33,614 nt of DNA from Mesaphorura yosii (lineage: Eukaryota > Arthropoda > Collembola > Poduromorpha > Tullbergiidae): the NCBI GenBank assembly GCA_009869945.1, contig WIXG01000600.1, forward strand, positions 1 through 33,614. The letters are read 5' to 3'. Under the pieces are notes generated by a model. The model had not been told where the DNA came from and ran no database searches. It saw nothing but the letters and a program-made list of their open reading frames with translations. Of this stretch, positions 1 through 18,824 are shown piece after piece (position 1 is the first letter of the stretch; each line of letters starts with the position of its first letter). Both the position numbers and the translations under genes were made by a program.

Positions 1-1830
1 GTAGAATGTTTGCGGAAGCCGCCCAGACGGATTGTACACGCCAAACATGACGTCGGCCATCGCCTCGCCTGCCGATTGACCGAGGTAGCCTGCCCAGATA
101 ATGGCACCTACCCGTGGATCGTCTTTCCAGTCTGACACGTCAATTCCACCTCCGGACACGACAAACATGATGACGGGCTCCTGCGCGACATCGAGCACGC
201 GCCGAATCAGTTCATTCTGGAGCCCGTACAAACTCAGGTTTGCCCTGTCAAGCCCCTCGCGCTCAACCTCGTTCGAGACGAGTCCGACGAAGAGGACGAC
301 CTGCTCCGATTCGGCCGCAAGGTCAACGGCCTCCTGCATATGTGAATCGTCGAATCCGGTCGCAAAGCAGCCGATCGCGTAGCCCAGATCCGGGACGTAT
401 TTTCTCAGCTCATCGATGGGCTCCTTGATGAAAGAGGGGTGCCCGTTGTAGATGCCCAGAAAGGTTTCTCCGCCGATGACGAGCGGGCCGATCGCCGACA
501 TGCTTGCCCGCCGGGCGCGGAAGTTGGTGGCGTCGATCGGGAGCGCTGGGCGGCCTGCCCTCGGCCCTGCAGCGTTGGGGGCGTTCTTCAGGAGGACAAT
601 GCTTTGGCGGGCCGCTTCGAGTGCCAGTGTCTGGTGGGGCGCACTGTCGACGATCGATGGCCCGAGCTCCTTGTAAGGCCGCGTCGCCTCCTTCTCGAAG
701 TAGCCGAGCCGCATGAGGGTCCTGAACAACCTGCCCAGGGCGGTGTCGATCAACTGCACGGGGACGACGCCGGAGTCGACCGCCGTCCGCAAATGCTCCT
801 CGAAGAATTTGACAAAGTACCAGCACTCGAGATCCATACCGGCGTCCAGCACGGCGTGGCACGCTTCGGGGCCCGTCATCGTGTAGTTGTGCTCCAGAAA
901 AACCCACGCGGCTGCGTCGCAGTCCGACGTCACGTAGCCGTCGAACCCCCACTTGCCACGGACGGTGTCGGTGAGGAGCGGTTTGTGGACGCAGGCGGGC
1001 ACACCGTTGATTGCATTGTAGGCGCACATGACACAGGACGCCCCGGCTTCTTGAACGCACGTCTGGAAGGCGGGCAGGTAAGTATCTGCCATGTCCTGCT
1101 CGGTCACGGTGGAGTCAAAGGAGAATCGATCTTCTTCCAGGCTGTGGGCGGCGAAATGCTTGCAGCAGGCGGACGCCTTCAGGAACCCGTCCTCACTTTC
1201 GCCTTGCAGACCTCGGACAAACTGGCGCCCGTACTCGGCGGAGAGACGGGGGTCCTCCCCAGGCGTCTCTTGACCTCTGCCCCAGCGGGGGTCCCGGAAA
1301 ATGTTAATGTCGGGGCTCCAGAAGGTCAGGCCAGAGTTACCGACGTTGCCAAAAACTCTGCGTACACAATTAAAATTTCAAATCTCCCAGGCCCGTGTTT
1401 TTCTTGATTTATCTTACCTCGCCTCGTTTCCGGTTGCATTCGCCACCCGGAAAAAGAGGTCCTTGTTGAAAGACGAGGCCAGATTGATAATTTGGGGAAA
1501 AGCCGTTGAGTACTCCGTCGGTGGCTGGAACCGGGTGCCGGGGCTGTACGCGACGCCGTGAAGAGCTTCATTCCACCAGTTATACTCCTCCAAGTCGACA
1601 TTCTCCAGGGCTCCGTTGAGCGTGTGGTGCATGGCCCCAATCTTTTCGTCCAGTGTCAGGCGCCCGATGAGATCGTCAACTCGAGCGTCGATCGACAGGC
1701 TCGAGTCGCAGAATGGCAGCGGGGCATTTCGGGGTTTGTCACAGTCCCACACGCGCTCTTGAGCCAAGGAAAGGGCGGCCAGCAGGAACGAGAGCGTGGC
1801 GGGAAATAGGAGCAGTGATTTTTTGTACAT
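1..1830 (-). CDS. Secreted GH3 beta-xylosidase/arabinofuranosidase-like glycosidase (5' part, runs off window)
   Basis: Two exons on the minus strand: 1830-1418, then 1357 down past position 1. The 60-nt intron 1358-1417 has a GTAAGA donor and a CGCAG acceptor. They give the first 590 residues of a protein that is usually about 750-800. A signal peptide of about 23 residues (MYKKSLLLFPATLSFLLAAL) precedes the GH3 N-terminal domain. Family hallmarks are visible: NWWNEALHGVA, DPRWGRGQETPGEDP, the KHF triad (204-206), and the nucleophile context GYVTSDCDA with Asp283. The second-domain motifs EREGLDRANLSL and YNPSGRLPQT follow. These match the plant/fungal xylosidase-type GH3 clade, which removes xylose or arabinose from xylan and arabinan outside the cell. 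A TATAAA lies 64-69 bp upstream of the ATG. The intron shows that the gene is host-adapted. Substrate is inferred; the 3' end is not visible. Confidence 0.9.
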
Positions 1831-6986: not shown

Positions 6987-7222
6987 TTTTAACGTCAAAA
7001 TAGACAATTTTAACACAAACACAAAGAATAGAAATAAAACATACGTTTTTATTAACAAATTGCAAATTCGCCAAGTAAATCAAATCAATAAAGATATGTT
7101 AATGTTAATTATGAAATCCACGAGTTGAAATTGAAATATTGCAAGATGAGATACAATTCAATAAATACTTTAGATTCAACCACAGTACAAAAGTGTGATT
7201 ACAACTGATAATTGTCCATTGA

Positions 7223-8320
7223 CTAATTGACTCCAAAAGTCTTGTTCCATATCTTCTTGGCCTTCGCTTCTTCGCCTTGTCCTTCATTGTTGAGGTTGTT
7301 ACTGTTGTGAAGGAACGCCTCCTGTGGCTTGACGACGCGGTCCCGCTCCGTCTCGACGATGGCCTTAAGTTTGTCGATGAATTCCTGCTGATTGGTCGGT
7401 TTATAACCCATAAATTCCCCCGAAGGCGCGTTGTAGTGCAGAATCAGTAGTTTGAAGCCCCCGCCGCCGGCTCCAGCGCTGGCGCATTCAATATGCACGT
7501 AGCCGCAGTACTGCCCCGACTTCATCGCCTCCGTCAGCTCCGCCAGGCCTGGGGCGTGTTCGCCGAATTGAAATCGAAGTGGCCGGACGTTCTGCATGAC
7601 CCCAAGTTTGTGGAGGATCGAGCTGGGAATCAGTTTCATGTGGAGCCGAGTCGGAGTGAAGTTTACGCTTCCGCCCACGCCTCCTCCTGCAGCGTGGCTG
7701 AATACTTGACAGGGCAGCGAGATCTTCGTATATGTCTTTGGCTCGACGCCTCCAGCAGGGCGGCCCCATTCAAGCTCGAGATCCCAGAGTTTCACGTTGA
7801 AAGGTCCGAATCGGGCGCCTAGTGATAGCGGTGTGGAGCTGGAAATCGATGCGGGCCGCTTTTTCTTGGGCCCGTACGCCGGAGGAGGGCTGCCACCACC
7901 ACTTTTTCGCTTCGTCGAGTTGATAATCCGTTGCACCGACACGCAAACATCGCACTTGCCACCGCAGTTGCGCCAGTGGGTAATTATTTGGCGTGTGGAG
8001 AAGCAAAACTGGAAGGGGCATTTAGCCGTCGGCGTCTCCGTCGACGGAGTGCCAGTGTTAGTGCAAGACGTGAGGTGTCGGAGCACGTCCTTCATCACGT
8101 CACAGTTGGGCAGCAAGCAGGCGGCGGCGGTGCAACGCTGGGCGTGGAGGACGAGGACGAGCTGGCGCTGGATGAGGTGGAACTTTACACTCAGATCCTG
8201 CTTATCTTTACCGTCTTTGCACTGATACTGATTTTGTGTTGGGAGAGCCGGTGCCCCAACCGCCGCAGCAGCGTTGGAGCTCCTGCCCGAGTTCACTGGT
8301 GCAGATTTCTGCATTGTCAT
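7223..8320 (-). CDS. TAZ zinc finger - MED25 ACID/PTOV fusion protein, copy 1
   Basis: Single-exon gene of 365 residues. Residues 46-131 form a TAZ zinc finger as in CBP/p300, with all three HCCC sites: H59/C63/C68/C73, H82/C86/C101/C106 and H115/C119/C123/C126, the last in the hallmark THWRNC context. A linker carries a basic NLS-like PKKKRP (151-156). Residues 167-328 form the activator-interacting (ACID, also called PTOV) domain of Mediator subunit MED25: a WxxxLEW strand, SLPCQV (201-206), RLHMKLIPSSIL, YCGYVHI, LLILHY and EFMGYKP. In their parent coactivators both domains bind acidic activation domains of transcription factors. No bromodomain, acetyltransferase or von Willebrand domain is present. 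It is probably a nuclear adaptor or decoy (inference). A paralogue lies upstream on the same strand. Confidence 0.9.
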   Translation of the reverse strand: MTMQKSAPVNSGRSSNAAAAVGAPALPTQNQYQCKDGKDKQDLSVKFHLIQRQLVLVLHAQRCTAAACLLPNCDVMKDVLRHLTSCTNTGTPSTETPTAKCPFQFCFSTRQIITHWRNCGGKCDVCVSVQRIINSTKRKSGGGSPPPAYGPKKKRPASISSSTPLSLGARFGPFNVKLWDLELEWGRPAGGVEPKTYTKISLPCQVFSHAAGGGVGGSVNFTPTRLHMKLIPSSILHKLGVMQNVRPLRFQFGEHAPGLAELTEAMKSGQYCGYVHIECASAGAGGGGFKLLILHYNAPSGEFMGYKPTNQQEFIDKLKAIVETERDRVVKPQEAFLHNSNNLNNEGQGEEAKAKKIWNKTFGVN

Positions 8321-9480
8321 AGTAATTAGTAAGTTGTCACTTAAGCTCGCTTAACTCGGGTAGTTAACAGCTTTTTTAAAGTATTTCAATGTTTTTTCAT
8401 TGTAATTAGCGATTTTCACTGATTATACACAAATCCACTGCTCACAGGCTGAGGGCTGCGTCGATACTGAAAAAGGGAGTCGGACGGACGTTGGAGATAC
8501 CTTAAATAAGAGGGCTGGGCTCTGTGGCCTTTGCGGCAGGACGTGGACGTTAACGTCACGTAGGCAATGATAGAACAGAAACGACATGTATGGAAGGAAA
8601 CGTTGCGTTGCGCGTTGGCACGAGTCTCATGTGACCCCGCATACGATTTGTATACGTTACATAGCAAATAGCATGAACATAGGCAATAGGCTAGGCAACG
8701 GCAAATAGCAATGACTCAACCCCTCGTAACGTTACGTCTTACGTGCGCATGCAAATGCATTGAAGCACGTTCGCTCGTCTCGTGACGTCACCCTGCCTCC
8801 CGGAGCTACCCAACAATGTACATGTAAAATGTGCTCAAATCGTCGCATACGTGCCGGGCCGCACGTGGATTAATCGACTGATGAAATTACGTACTTTTTC
8901 TTGGAAATGATGCTGCATTTTTGCGAATTGCGTAGAATCCTCGACGCATTTTAGGTATCGAGTCTGCACGGCGACGCTTCATTTCGCACGTTCCCACAAG
9001 CACGAAGCCAACGAATTGCAGTACTGCGAATTGCAGCTGTTAAAACTGGAAACATCTGCAAAAAGGTGGCCTAAAATGCCAGTTTATGCAAAAATTCGAA
9101 AATGGATGCAAAGACACGTAGACGGCTATTTTTAATCCAAACAAGAATTTACAACGTATTTTCACTGCGTAATTTAAACTTTTTATTTATTGATTGACTG
9201 ACAACTTGAAATGAAACAAGAAAAAACATGAATTTGTACAATCAGCATAGCTTAAATGCTTAAAAACGCAAACGCTGGGCTCAGATGCATGGGCTATTGA
9301 TTATTAGTTGTTAATTACAAATGATAAATGCTGTTAATACGAATGAACTACGTAATTCTACTGTGAACAGAATACCAGAACCAATCAAGGACGAGCTGAA
9401 TCTTGACACTCAACACTCGACTCGACACTGCACTGGTGTAGTTTGCATTCGTCGTATGATTGAGCTGATGCTGATAAGAA
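8321..9480. other. Intergenic between the two TAZ-ACID genes, promoter side of copy 1
   Basis: No open frame of interest. It contains a perfect CRE palindrome TGACGTCA (8783-8790), further ACGT-centred palindromes (AACGTCACGT near 8552, TAACGTTACGT near 8727) and an octamer-like ATGCAAAT (8749-8756). These lie about 230-470 bp upstream of copy 1, where proximal regulation would be expected. The motifs are seen; regulatory function is inferred. Confidence 0.4.
8783..8790. promoter_or_regulatory. CRE-like palindrome TGACGTCA
   Basis: Exact 8-bp cAMP-response-element palindrome, about 460 bp upstream of the copy 1 start. It is the site bound by CREB/ATF factors, whose coactivator CBP is the source of the TAZ domain encoded next to it. 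The link may be chance. Confidence 0.35.
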
Positions 9481-10602
9481 TCACGTGGTGACTGAGATCA
9501 TTTCAACGTCGCGGTCGCGATCGTCTAGGGTCCGCTGCTCGTGTCGATTTTGTACTTGAATCTGCGCTTGCACGACGTAACGGAGCCGCTTCACAAACTC
9601 CTTCTGATTGGAGGGCAGACAGCCGACGAAGGCGCCCCGCTCCTCGTCGTACGTCAAGATGAGCATCTTCAGGGGGCATCCCAACCCACCGCCCGGCCCC
9701 GTGCTGTCAAAGTGCACGTACCCGTAGGAGCCCGCCTTCAGCGCCGCCTGCAGCTCGGCAACCTCTTGCATGTGCAGCTCGTTGCTGGAGCTGCCAAACT
9801 TCAGAAGCACGTGCTGGCCGTCCAACTTGAGGGGGCCGGTGCCAGCGACTTGATTGACGAGCTGGGCGGGAATTAGCTTTAGGTGGAGTTTGTCGGGCCA
9901 GCAGACTGTGTTGAGACGGGTCGTGGAGTAAACGCTGCAGGTCATTGTGAAGTTCCGCATGTTTTGGAGCGCCTTGGCGCGTTGGTGCCACTCCATCGAC
10001 CCTGTCCAGCTGCAGTGGCGAAATTGGAGCCTGGTCGTGGCGGAAAGCTTAGGCCCCTTCATGCCCTTAGCGACGGGGTGGGGCGCCACTGGCGGTGTTC
10101 GGTGGTCAGCCTTCACTGTCACTGGGGCACAAATGTCACATAGATTACGAGTGGGGCAGTTCTTCCAGTGACCGAGGATGGCGCGGGACGAGGCGCAGTA
10201 TGGAACGGCACACTTCTGCAGATCTTCGATGTACGGGCCCTGCTGCTGCTGCTGGACGCAGGCGTTCATGTGAACGAGCACGGACTTCATCGTGCCGCAG
10301 TGTGGGGTCGGACAGGACTCCCGGAGGCCGGCTGCGGCGGCGCCGACGCCGAGGGCGCATTTCTGGGCGTGGAAGAGCAGCGCGAGCTGCTTCTGCATCA
10401 ACACGTGCTTGCTATTGTTATTGCTGTTGGCGTGGGGCGGGTGCGGGTCGTACAAGGCGCCTGGGAGAGTCTGGCGCTGGTTTGGGCTCGCGAGGCGCTG
10501 ATGCTGCTGTTCTTGGTGGCGCGCCAGGGCCAGTGCCCGTGCTTGGTTTTTCTTGTCTTGGCTCCTTCGGCTGCACATGCTGCTGTTGCTGCTGTTGGAC
10601 AT
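9481..10602 (-). CDS. TAZ zinc finger - MED25 ACID/PTOV fusion protein, copy 2
   Basis: Single exon, 373 residues from the ATG at 10602 (MSNSSNSSMC). The frame stays open upstream to 10869, but that part has no TAZ-ACID counterpart and is Cys/Leu-rich, so the internal ATG is preferred. The N-terminus is basic and Gln/Asn/Pro-rich. TAZ at 66-160 has complete ligands H78/C82/C97/C102, H111/C115/C131/C136 and H145/C149/C155/C158, including GHWKNC. ACID at about 190-345 shows WTGSMEWHQ, WPDKLHLKLIPAQLV, YGYVHF, MLILTYDE and CLPSNQKEF, but lacks the SLPCQV strand kept in copy 1 (TMTCSV instead). A polyglutamine run sits in the second zinc loop. The tandem, same-strand arrangement shows local duplication followed by strong divergence. 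Predicted to be nuclear; the partner activators are unknown. Confidence 0.9.
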   Translation of the reverse strand: MSNSSNSSMCSRRSQDKKNQARALALARHQEQQHQRLASPNQRQTLPGALYDPHPPHANSNNNSKHVLMQKQLALLFHAQKCALGVGAAAAGLRESCPTPHCGTMKSVLVHMNACVQQQQQGPYIEDLQKCAVPYCASSRAILGHWKNCPTRNLCDICAPVTVKADHRTPPVAPHPVAKGMKGPKLSATTRLQFRHCSWTGSMEWHQRAKALQNMRNFTMTCSVYSTTRLNTVCWPDKLHLKLIPAQLVNQVAGTGPLKLDGQHVLLKFGSSSNELHMQEVAELQAALKAGSYGYVHFDSTGPGGGLGCPLKMLILTYDEERGAFVGCLPSNQKEFVKRLRYVVQAQIQVQNRHEQRTLDDRDRDVEMISVTT

Positions 10603-11408: not shown

Positions 11409-13010
11409 ATGAATTCTCTCCAGAATTTCGTGCTTTCGTCACTCGTCGTTGTCGCCTTCAGCTTCTGCTCCACGGGCGTTTGGGGCCAAGGCTTTGGGCG
11501 GTGGTTCGGACTGTTAAGCCAGTCCCCGTTCCCAAGCAAGGGCCAAGGCCAAGTGACGACACGATTGGCCTCGGGTACCGGCGGTTCCGACGCCTACCTC
11601 AGCCAGTCGAGCCAATGCTGCAATTTGGTGCAGTTCAGCGGGTCAGACACGAGCCAACGGTGTTTCGACTTAAAGCAGTGCGAGAAAGGCGGCAGCAGCG
11701 GCGGAATCAACTTTGGATGGACCTTCGACCCACAGACTTTCGGCAGCGGGGGTTCATCCACATTCGATTTTGAGGGGCAGAAAATGTGTGCGTGCATGGC
11801 AGGCGCTACGCGCGGGGGTCAGAAGATCGGGAGACTCTGCTGCTCGTCGAAGTACCCAACAAACTCTGGACCGACCTTTGGAGAATTGCAGCCTGAACCC
11901 CCGAAAACCAACACGGCGTCTCCAACGATCCATTTCGATGACGGCCCGAGACCAAAGCCGCAGCCATCCTCCCCTCCGTCTACACGCCCGTCACAGCCAC
12001 AGCCGCTGCCAATTCCACCGGTGAAAGACGACGCCTCGATCCACTCCGTCGAATGGAATCTACCGACAAAAGCACTCGTCCGCTCCCACCCAAACCTGCG
12101 ACTTCTCCCCGGGCTTGACTCCTGCGGCCAGGCGAAAGCCCGCTCGGGCATCGTGCCGTACATTATCGGAGGCGTCAACTCGAAGCTCGGGCACCACCCG
12201 TGGATGACTCGGCTGGGCATTCTGAGCCCCGACCCCGAAGAGGGCTTGAGCTTCGCATGCGGGGGCACACTCATCAACGAGCGCTACGTGCTGACGGCCG
12301 CTCACTGCGTTTCTGCCCCGCCGCTCCCGCCGGGCTACAAACTCACTACTGTCCGGCTGGGGGAATTCGACCAACGCCAGGATCCCGACTGCGACGCACG
12401 GGAGTGCGCCCCCTCCGTGCAGGACATCACCGTGGAGCAAATTGTGTCCCACCCCGCATACAGCCTGAGTTCGCACGAGAATGACATCGCCCTCCTGCGC
12501 CTGGCGGCCCCCGCCGCGCTCGGGTCGTACGTAACGCCAATTTGCTTGCCCGTGCACGATTTTCACCGCATGGGAGAACGGCCTTCGACCACCCTCCGGC
12601 TAGCAGCCGGCGGAGGCGATCAGCTGACGGTCGCCGGGTGGGGCCGCACGCGATTCGACAAGGAAGACGGGTCCGACGTGCTGCAGGAGGTCAAAGTACC
12701 CATTGTGACTCGGACGAAGTGCCAGGACTATTTTCGGGAGCTGTTCGGGGTGATCAAGGACGGGCGCTTCTGCTCTGGTGGCGAAATGAGCCGAGATTCT
12801 TGCCGGGGCGACTCCGGGGGGCCGATCATGGGGCAAGTGGCCCTCAAGCCCGCGAATGGAGCCAGTAGCCTGACGCGAATGGTCCAGCTGGGGATTGTGA
12901 GCATCGGGCGGGAGGACGCGCAGTGCTCCATGGCGGGGGAAGGCCACCTGACGTTGTATACCAAAGTGGCGCATTACTTACCATGGATTCTGGACCAAAT
13001 CAGGCCGTGA
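11409..13010 (+). CDS. Secreted trypsin-like serine protease with Cys-rich prodomain (clip-like)
   Basis: Single exon, 533 residues. A signal peptide ends near VWG-QG (about residue 26). The N-terminal module (68-146) has eight cysteines, paired as QCC, CFDLKQC, MCACM and LCC, reminiscent of clip domains of arthropod protease cascades. A Pro-rich linker (155-210) and the interdomain Cys (LDSCG, 239) follow. The S1 domain starts at Ile252 (IIGG). The triad is His299 (TAAHC), Asp359 (ENDIALLRL) and Ser469 (CRGDSGGP). Asp463 sits in the S1-pocket position, predicting cleavage after Arg/Lys. Odd points: the zymogen bond follows Tyr251, not Arg/Lys, and the usual SWG (215) is SIG. Extracellular; an immune or developmental cascade role is inferred. 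AATAAA lies at 13092-13097. Confidence 0.9.
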   Translation: MNSLQNFVLSSLVVVAFSFCSTGVWGQGFGRWFGLLSQSPFPSKGQGQVTTRLASGTGGSDAYLSQSSQCCNLVQFSGSDTSQRCFDLKQCEKGGSSGGINFGWTFDPQTFGSGGSSTFDFEGQKMCACMAGATRGGQKIGRLCCSSKYPTNSGPTFGELQPEPPKTNTASPTIHFDDGPRPKPQPSSPPSTRPSQPQPLPIPPVKDDASIHSVEWNLPTKALVRSHPNLRLLPGLDSCGQAKARSGIVPYIIGGVNSKLGHHPWMTRLGILSPDPEEGLSFACGGTLINERYVLTAAHCVSAPPLPPGYKLTTVRLGEFDQRQDPDCDARECAPSVQDITVEQIVSHPAYSLSSHENDIALLRLAAPAALGSYVTPICLPVHDFHRMGERPSTTLRLAAGGGDQLTVAGWGRTRFDKEDGSDVLQEVKVPIVTRTKCQDYFRELFGVIKDGRFCSGGEMSRDSCRGDSGGPIMGQVALKPANGASSLTRMVQLGIVSIGREDAQCSMAGEGHLTLYTKVAHYLPWILDQIRP

Positions 13011-18135: not shown

Positions 18136-18759
18136 TTAAACGATCTTGACATCAGCGCAGTTTCTGAAAACCTGAGCCGGGCAGGGGTTGTCGCAGAAGT
18201 CCGAGGTCCCACAGTGACCGGGGTACGACGTTCTGTACGTCCAACGAATCGTGCATCGCTCGCAACGGACTCCGGCCGGGAGCCAGACTTGGGCTCTGAT
18301 AGGGCCCGGGGCGTTGTTGTCGTACGGAATGCAAACACGGTTCTGGTCGCGGATTTCCTCGGTCGCCTCGAGGATGATCAGTTTCTGGAAGCAACCGTCC
18401 GTCTCCTGCGCCTGGGGGCAGAGTTCAATTTCAAAATGCCCACGGTGGGCGGCTTGGAACTCGGAGACCATTTCGACGACGGCGCCCGACTGGTACGTCG
18501 CCACGATTACGCCCTTGTCATAGATTCCGCCCTGGCTCGCCGAAGTGTCGCCTGCCGGGCCGCCACAGCGTGCACAGGACGAGTAGTTCGGGTCTTGGCC
18601 GCCACACTCGACGCCCTGGTAATTCCACTGGTACGGCTGCTCCGTGTTGAACTCTGGGTGCAGGTGAATGGCTGTGCGCGCCACGGGGCTCTTCAAGTAC
18701 CCGTGCCCGTGCGCCGTCGCGAGGGCGAAGGCGGCTAGAATGAAAAGTTTCAGAGACAT
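18136..18759 (-). CDS. AA15 lytic polysaccharide monooxygenase
   Basis: Single exon, 207 residues. Start chosen at the ATG 18759: the frame extends upstream only without an ATG, and a TATAAAAG lies 58-65 bp before it. The signal peptide MSLKLFILAAFALATAHG is followed at once by HGYLKSP, so cleavage exposes His19 as the first copper-brace histidine. The second is His105 in FQAAHRGHFEIELC. The AA15 cysteine pattern (VECGG, CARCG, ELCP, CERC, HCG, FCDNPCP) and the ending RNCADVKI are present; Phe198 near the end is the probable axial residue. The enzyme cleaves chitin and/or cellulose oxidatively with copper and a reductant, outside the cell. AA15 is an established arthropod family (for example in the firebrat gut). 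Substrate preference cannot be read from sequence. Confidence 0.94.
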   Translation of the reverse strand: MSLKLFILAAFALATAHGHGYLKSPVARTAIHLHPEFNTEQPYQWNYQGVECGGQDPNYSSCARCGGPAGDTSASQGGIYDKGVIVATYQSGAVVEMVSEFQAAHRGHFEIELCPQAQETDGCFQKLIILEATEEIRDQNRVCIPYDNNAPGPIRAQVWLPAGVRCERCTIRWTYRTSYPGHCGTSDFCDNPCPAQVFRNCADVKIV

Positions 18760-18816
18760 TTTGAGCCAAGCTCGTTTCTTTTTCTGATTCTTGCTTGCTG
18801 GGTGGTTCAAGTGAAG

Positions 18817-18824
18817 CTTTTATA
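18817..18824 (-). promoter_or_regulatory. TATA box of the AA15 LPMO gene
   Basis: TATAAAAG on the minus strand, 58-65 bp upstream of the chosen ATG and only 7 bp before the upstream non-ATG extension of the frame. It thus supports the internal ATG as the true start. Confidence 0.55.

What the first reader, a model, noticed from the sequence alone, without database searches (positions are those of the whole stretch)
7223..10602. Two tandem genes fuse a CBP/p300 TAZ finger to a MED25 ACID/PTOV domain
Both proteins (365 and 373 residues) hold complete HCCC zinc ligands of a TAZ domain followed by a MED25-type activator-interacting domain (SLPCQV, LHMKLIP, YVH, LLILxY, FMGxxP). TAZ and ACID each bind acidic activation domains, but in two separate coactivators (CBP/p300 and Mediator). 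A protein made of only these two modules, with no catalytic or Mediator-anchoring part, could bridge activators to both machines, or act as a soluble decoy that mops up activators. I know of no described TAZ-ACID protein. Being intronless and duplicated side by side suggests a retro-derived or recently evolved lineage-specific family.
Basis: partly seen in the sequence, partly recalled or inferred. Interest (0 to 1): 0.92.

Follow-up and report, generated by a model that had tools for sequence, protein, structure and literature searches.

The report
Paired TAZ1–ACID coactivator fusion genes
Two neighbouring genes of an arthropod, probably a springtail, each join the activator-binding zinc finger of CBP/p300 to the activator-binding domain of Mediator subunit MED25 in one small protein that lacks the working parts of both parents, a combination not described in anything we could search and which may act as a competitor or adaptor in gene control.

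Summary
Both ORFs (373 aa, 10602-9484; 365 aa, 8320-7226; minus strand) pass Pfam's cut-offs for zf-TAZ and Med25 ACID in one frame. Structure comparison of both models puts MED25 ACID first and CBP/p300 TAZ1 next. The finger is TAZ1-type; all 12 zinc ligands are present, a pattern in 0 of 20,000 shuffles per protein. Another source holds a 94% identical protein with both domains. MED25 (with VWA) and CBP exist elsewhere in the genome, each with an intron inside the domain concerned; both fusions lack it, which fits an RNA-mediated origin. The pair is old: 30-33% identical, silent sites near saturation, dN/dS 0.40-0.57 by two methods. Most likely a PTOV1-like, Mediator-free competitor or adaptor: inferred, no binding or expression data. 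Against plain activator trapping: human ACID's activator-contact residues are mostly replaced, most of all in ORF2. The genome also holds a RING-ACID fusion. A new architecture from known parts; its spread is unknown.

The parts
9484..10602 (-). ORF1, TAZ-ACID protein 1, 373 aa, one open frame (frame open up to 10881)
10129..10398 (-). TAZ1-type zinc finger of ORF1 (residues 69-158)
   Evidence: PF02135 over cut-off; CBP TAZ1 best PDB sequence match; fold; 12 ligands
9562..10020 (-). Med25-type ACID domain of ORF1 (residues 195-347)
   Evidence: PF11232 over cut-off; MED25 ACID best fold match
7226..8320 (-). ORF2, TAZ-ACID protein 2, 365 aa, one open frame
   Evidence: 94% identical relative P0001
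7943..8173 (-). TAZ1-type zinc finger of ORF2 (residues 50-126)
   Evidence: PF02135 over cut-off
7343..7792 (-). Med25-type ACID domain of ORF2 (residues 177-326)
   Evidence: PF11232 over cut-off
7793..7927 (-). basic linker of ORF2 between the domains (residues 132-176, net charge +8, with KRK and KKKR clusters; NLS-like by inspection)
   Evidence: the NLS reading is inference from the sequence
9182..9191 (-). two overlapping AATAAA hexamers downstream of ORF1, possible poly(A) signal
   Evidence: motif only
7048..7053 (-). AATAAA downstream of ORF2, possible poly(A) signal
   Evidence: motif only

Best explanation
Two paralogous genes encode small, probably nuclear adaptor proteins made by joining a CBP/p300-type TAZ1 finger to a MED25/PTOV-type ACID domain. 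Origin (inferred): domain coding sequences without their parental introns were joined, probably once and through an RNA intermediate, then the fusion was duplicated in tandem and diverged under protein-level constraint. Function (inferred): like vertebrate PTOV1, which has ACID domains but no Mediator link and keeps CBP from MED25, the proteins occupy activators (through TAZ1) and/or CBP or activators (through ACID) without bringing a HAT or Mediator, so that they compete with CBP and MED25 and damp or redirect a subset of activator-driven transcription.
For: Shown: both domains in one frame in both genes with matching folds; intact zinc ligands in ORF1, ORF2 and P0001; no HAT, bromodomain, KIX or VWA match in either protein at E up to 1, while MED25 with VWA and CBP pieces sit elsewhere; parental introns inside ACID (MED25) and inside TAZ1 (CBP) absent in both fusions; ACID halves of ORF1, ORF2 and P0001 group together (support 94/91, just under the program's own star of 95/80), in keeping with one fusion; net positive charge of the TAZ (+5, +6) and ACID (+5, +2) regions and a basic linker in ORF2; dN/dS 0.40 (NG86) or 0.57 (LWL85); P0001 keeps the architecture with 15 of 17 substitutions among the 169 of 360 compared residues of low model confidence (Fisher p 0.0006). 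Precedent: PTOV1 did not interact with Mediator and sequesters CBP from MED25 (PMC5355357, passages).
Against: No expression or binding data. Of published activator-contact residues of human ACID, ORF1 keeps 3 of 7 (H1) and 2 of 12 (H2), ORF2 0 of 7 and 1 of 12, against background identities of 40 of 117 and 39 of 121; this genome's own MED25 keeps 6 of 7 on H1 but only 3 of 12 on H2. In the TAZ tree the two fusions do not form a supported group, so a single fusion rests on the ACID half and the shared architecture. By Pfam span the P0001 substitutions are not rarer inside the domains (11 of 227 against 6 of 133, added up): the constraint shows only by model confidence, and P0001 was itself a row in that model's alignment. 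dS is near saturation, so dN/dS is rough.
Confidence: 0.42

Rival explanations
1. Bridge or positive coactivator: TAZ1 and ACID hold two activation domains, or an activator and CBP, at once and help assemble the coactivators at promoters.
For: Two separate folded modules joined by a linker of low model confidence; MED25's PTOV domain is reported to bind CBP (PMC5355357 passages).
Against: No Mediator anchor or HAT found in either protein, so nothing in it would bring the machinery except by contacts of the two ligand-binding domains.
Confidence: 0.2
2. Neofunctional adaptor: the domains kept their folds but changed partners, so neither acts as in CBP or MED25.
For: Human ACID H1/H2 contact residues largely replaced, most of all in ORF2; the two ACID halves differ from each other as much as from MED25 (31% against 27-33% identity).
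Against: The TAZ halves are still 47-48% identical to human CBP TAZ1; ORF1 keeps K413, V534 and R538, and ORF2 has similar residues (I, L, K) at the three alpha-3 positions of H1.
Confidence: 0.28
3. Decaying retrocopies without function.
For: Single frames without the parental introns.
Against: Two full-length frames kept despite near-saturated silent divergence, dN/dS 0.40-0.57; 12 of 12 ligands kept in three sequences; 94% identical intact relative.
Confidence: 0.05
4. Assembly or reading artefact: two genes run together.
For: None found.
Against: Same architecture in two diverged neighbours and in P0001 from another source (3 contigs, longest 1412 bases).
Confidence: 0.02

Closest known systems
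PTOV1 (prostate tumor overexpressed 1)
   Same: ACID/PTOV domain, not found with Mediator; a small adaptor reported to compete with MED25 for CBP (PMC5355357 passages)
   Different: PTOV1 has two ACID domains in tandem; here one ACID and one TAZ1
MED25 (Mediator subunit 25)
   Different: no VWA domain; TAZ finger added; no intron in ACID
CBP/p300 TAZ1 (CH1) domain
   Same: 46% (ORF1) and 43% (ORF2) identical to this genome's CBP TAZ1, 48% and 47% to human CBP TAZ1; 12 HCCC ligands
   Different: no KIX, bromodomain, HAT or ZZ match and one TAZ only; no intron in TAZ
Plant BTB-TAZ (BT) proteins
   Same: small proteins that use TAZ outside CBP (recalled; PMC7324939 seen as a search listing with the start of its abstract)
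   Different: BTB instead of ACID; no BTB match here
p300-like protein of Crassostrea angulata (P0002, 484 aa)
   Same: animal protein with TAZ fingers and no catalytic domain among its listed Pfam domains
   Different: carries KIX, no Med25 domain listed

Membership tests
TAZ zinc finger (PF02135), TAZ1 type | Pfam score over cut-off and three HCCC zinc sites | tested here: met
   53.9 (ORF1) and 54.3 (ORF2) bits against 25; 12 of 12 ligands in ORF1, ORF2, P0001
TAZ zinc finger (PF02135), TAZ1 type | closer to TAZ1 than TAZ2 | tested here: met
   43-49% identity to TAZ1 of own CBP, human CBP and oyster against 27-34% to TAZ2; best PDB sequence hits are TAZ1
Med25 ACID/PTOV domain (PF11232) | Pfam score over cut-off and ACID beta-barrel fold | tested here: met
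Med25 ACID/PTOV domain (PF11232) | activator-contact residues of the H1 and H2 faces | tested here: inconclusive
   ORF1 3 of 7 and 2 of 12, ORF2 0 of 7 and 1 of 12; own MED25 6 of 7 and 3 of 12
Mediator subunit MED25 | VWA domain that links to Mediator | tested here: not met
   no VWA match in the proteins; PF11265 found only on contig C2 (3 matches)
PTOV1 | two tandem ACID domains | tested here: not met
   one Med25 stretch per protein
PTOV1 | keeps CBP from MED25 | not testable with these tools
   needs binding and reporter assays
CBP/p300 | HAT, bromodomain, KIX, TAZ2 | tested here: not met
   only zf-TAZ (one stretch) and Med25 pass cut-offs
Plant BT (BTB-TAZ) proteins | BTB domain | tested here: not met
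   no BTB match

The most novel reading that the evidence does not exclude
A natural bivalent activator trap: one protein carries an activator-binding pocket of each of the two major coactivators, CBP/p300 and Mediator, with neither's output, born by RNA-mediated fusion and kept as a diverged pair. The same genome fused ACID to a RING E3-type module as well, so ACID may serve this lineage as a portable activator-targeting tag for sequestration (with TAZ) or ubiquitination (with RING).
Probability: 0.25. Interest if true: 0.82.

Novelty: new variant of a known kind. Interest (0 to 1): 0.66.

Why it matters
CBP/p300 and Mediator are two main coactivator machines of animals and share activators such as p53; a natural protein made only of one activator-binding domain of each would be a ready test of how activators choose between them, and a possible natural dominant-negative tool. 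It would also be a case of regulatory innovation by fusion of coactivator domains rather than of DNA-binding factors.

Tried and rejected
Protein search with ORF1 alone gave no hit at E 0.001 among 7745 candidates; with the two-row alignment, P0001 and three proteins without a listed Med25 domain (only the 8000 candidates sharing most words were scored); with ORF2 residues 44-330, P0001 alone among 5480 candidates. Picking candidates by shared words can miss relatives: P0002-P0004 appeared but not. So restriction to one lineage is not shown. No other collection of eukaryote sequence was open to me. 'lgn', the source of P0001, I read as the Logan assemblies of SRA (recalled); its species and whether it is DNA or RNA are unknown, and it may be a strain of the same species.

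Literature: listings with starts of abstracts (7 of 7 listed; none found; 5 of 5; 18 of 18; 14 of 14; 20 of 21; 8 of 30; 8 of 36; 5 of 5); passages of PMC5355357, PMC3431373, PMC12431651, PMC7564715 (one search found none), PMC6222444, PMC5490193. No title or abstract start in those listings speaks of a TAZ-ACID protein; most subscription papers are not held.

Full report

TAZ1, not TAZ2. The fingers are 43-48% identical to TAZ1 of this genome's CBP and of human CBP, and 27-34% to TAZ2. Sequence searches of the PDB put TAZ1 chains first.

The rest of the genome (93 Mb, 1127 contigs). PF11232 rings at four places: canonical MED25 on C2, ORF1, ORF2, and a RING-bearing gene on C253. The Med25 VWA domain is found only on C2, 1.4-2.3 kb upstream of that ACID. 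PF02135 rings at five: ORF1, ORF2, CBP TAZ1 on C113, the first part of CBP TAZ2 on C308 and a CBP-like paralogue on C382. A search with ORF2 found no further TAZ-ACID copy (5 matches: itself, ORF1, and the C2, C113 and C382 genes).

Origin. In this genome MED25 has an intron inside ACID (within the Arg codon between GFVD and IRKVI) and CBP has one inside TAZ1 (before CTLPHC); both are read from GT-AG and frame. Both fusions run through these positions without a break. Loss of both introns in both genes fits a processed (RNA-mediated) origin; random intron loss is not excluded, and another large single frame lies next door (a 533-aa trypsin-type gene at 11409-13010). The ACID half might come from a PTOV1-like gene instead of MED25 (see Tried and rejected). 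The ACID halves of ORF1, ORF2 and P0001 group together (94/91, just under the program's star); the TAZ halves are unresolved. A single fusion followed by tandem duplication is the simplest reading. It is not recent: 30% identity by BLASTP, 33% over the alignment; over 325 codons NG86 gives dN 0.78 and dS 1.93, LWL85 0.82 and 1.45 (ratios 0.40 and 0.57), with silent change near saturation.

Constraint. P0001, a 366-aa protein from another source (three member sequences, three contigs, longest 1412 bases), is 343 of 365 columns (94%) identical to ORF2 and has both domains. Seventeen substitutions and a six-residue insertion separate the two apart from the ends. Fifteen of 17 substitutions fall in residues of low model confidence, which are 169 of 360 compared (Fisher p 0.0006); counted by Pfam span instead, domains and remainder are equal (11 of 227 and 6 of 133). 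P0001 was a row in the model's alignment, a mild circularity. None of the zinc ligands differs.

How it may work. MED25's PTOV/ACID domain binds activation domains and is reported to bind CBP; PTOV1, with ACID domains but no Mediator link, keeps CBP from MED25 and represses RAR targets (PMC5355357 passages). TAZ1 structures are solved with HIF-1alpha and CITED2 (PDB titles). A protein with TAZ1 and ACID but neither HAT nor VWA would on these precedents compete with both coactivators or tether an activator to CBP; this is inference. The basic linker of ORF2 (net +8, with KRK and KKKR clusters) looks like a nuclear localisation signal. Against a plain reading: the contact residues reported for human ACID (H1: PMC7564715 passages; H2: PMC6222444 passages) are kept in 3 of 7 and 2 of 12 (ORF1) and 0 of 7 and 1 of 12 (ORF2). 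The animal's own MED25 keeps 6 of 7 and 3 of 12, so the H2 face is a poor guide here, but on H1 the fusions depart from their own MED25. At the three alpha-3 helix positions of H1 the character hydrophobic-hydrophobic-basic is kept in both (VLR, ILK).

Host. TTAGG repeats: 108 sites against 1 for the reversed control pattern. A 3156-codon frame with three condensation domains on C420 resembles the ACV synthetases reported for Folsomia candida (PMC5490193 passages). Collembola is likely, not proven.

Novelty. No title or abstract start found speaks of TAZ with ACID, and no protein but P0001 showed both domains, within the limits told under Tried and rejected. The domains are known; the architecture, without the catalytic and anchoring parts, and the parallel RING-ACID fusion (zf-C3HC4_2 35.6 bits, Med25 52.2 bits once its 80-base intron is removed) are, to my knowledge, new.

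Noticed in passing
L004:779-2544 (+), contig C253: A second ACID fusion: RING finger and Med25 ACID over cut-off in one gene, with a zf-TRAF match below cut-off; the ACID is split by an 80-base GT-AG intron, and a long low-complexity C-terminus follows. A possible activator-directed E3 ligase.
   Followed up: partly
L029:5172-9786 (-), contig C382: A diverged CBP/p300 paralogue in few large frames: TAZ and bromodomain over cut-off, KIX and p300-PHD matches below cut-off, and a long frame that looks by eye like HAT and ZZ; only 30% identical to the CBP of the same genome in TAZ1.
   Followed up: partly
contig C420, 24688-32376 (+): One open frame of 3156 codons with three NRPS condensation domains, perhaps an ACV synthetase of horizontal origin; further condensation domains on C394 and C1089.
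   Followed up: no
P0002: A 484-aa p300-like protein of Crassostrea angulata with TAZ and KIX but no catalytic domain listed: CBP fragments may persist in other animals too.
   Followed up: no
window 18139-18819 (-) and 1-1377 (-): LPMO_10-type polysaccharide monooxygenase and glycosyl hydrolase family 3 genes, possibly part of a plant- or fungus-digesting repertoire.
   Followed up: no
contigs such as C221, C1051, C936: Many TTAGG runs inside contigs, often on small contigs, perhaps subtelomeric or telomere-targeting elements.
   Followed up: no
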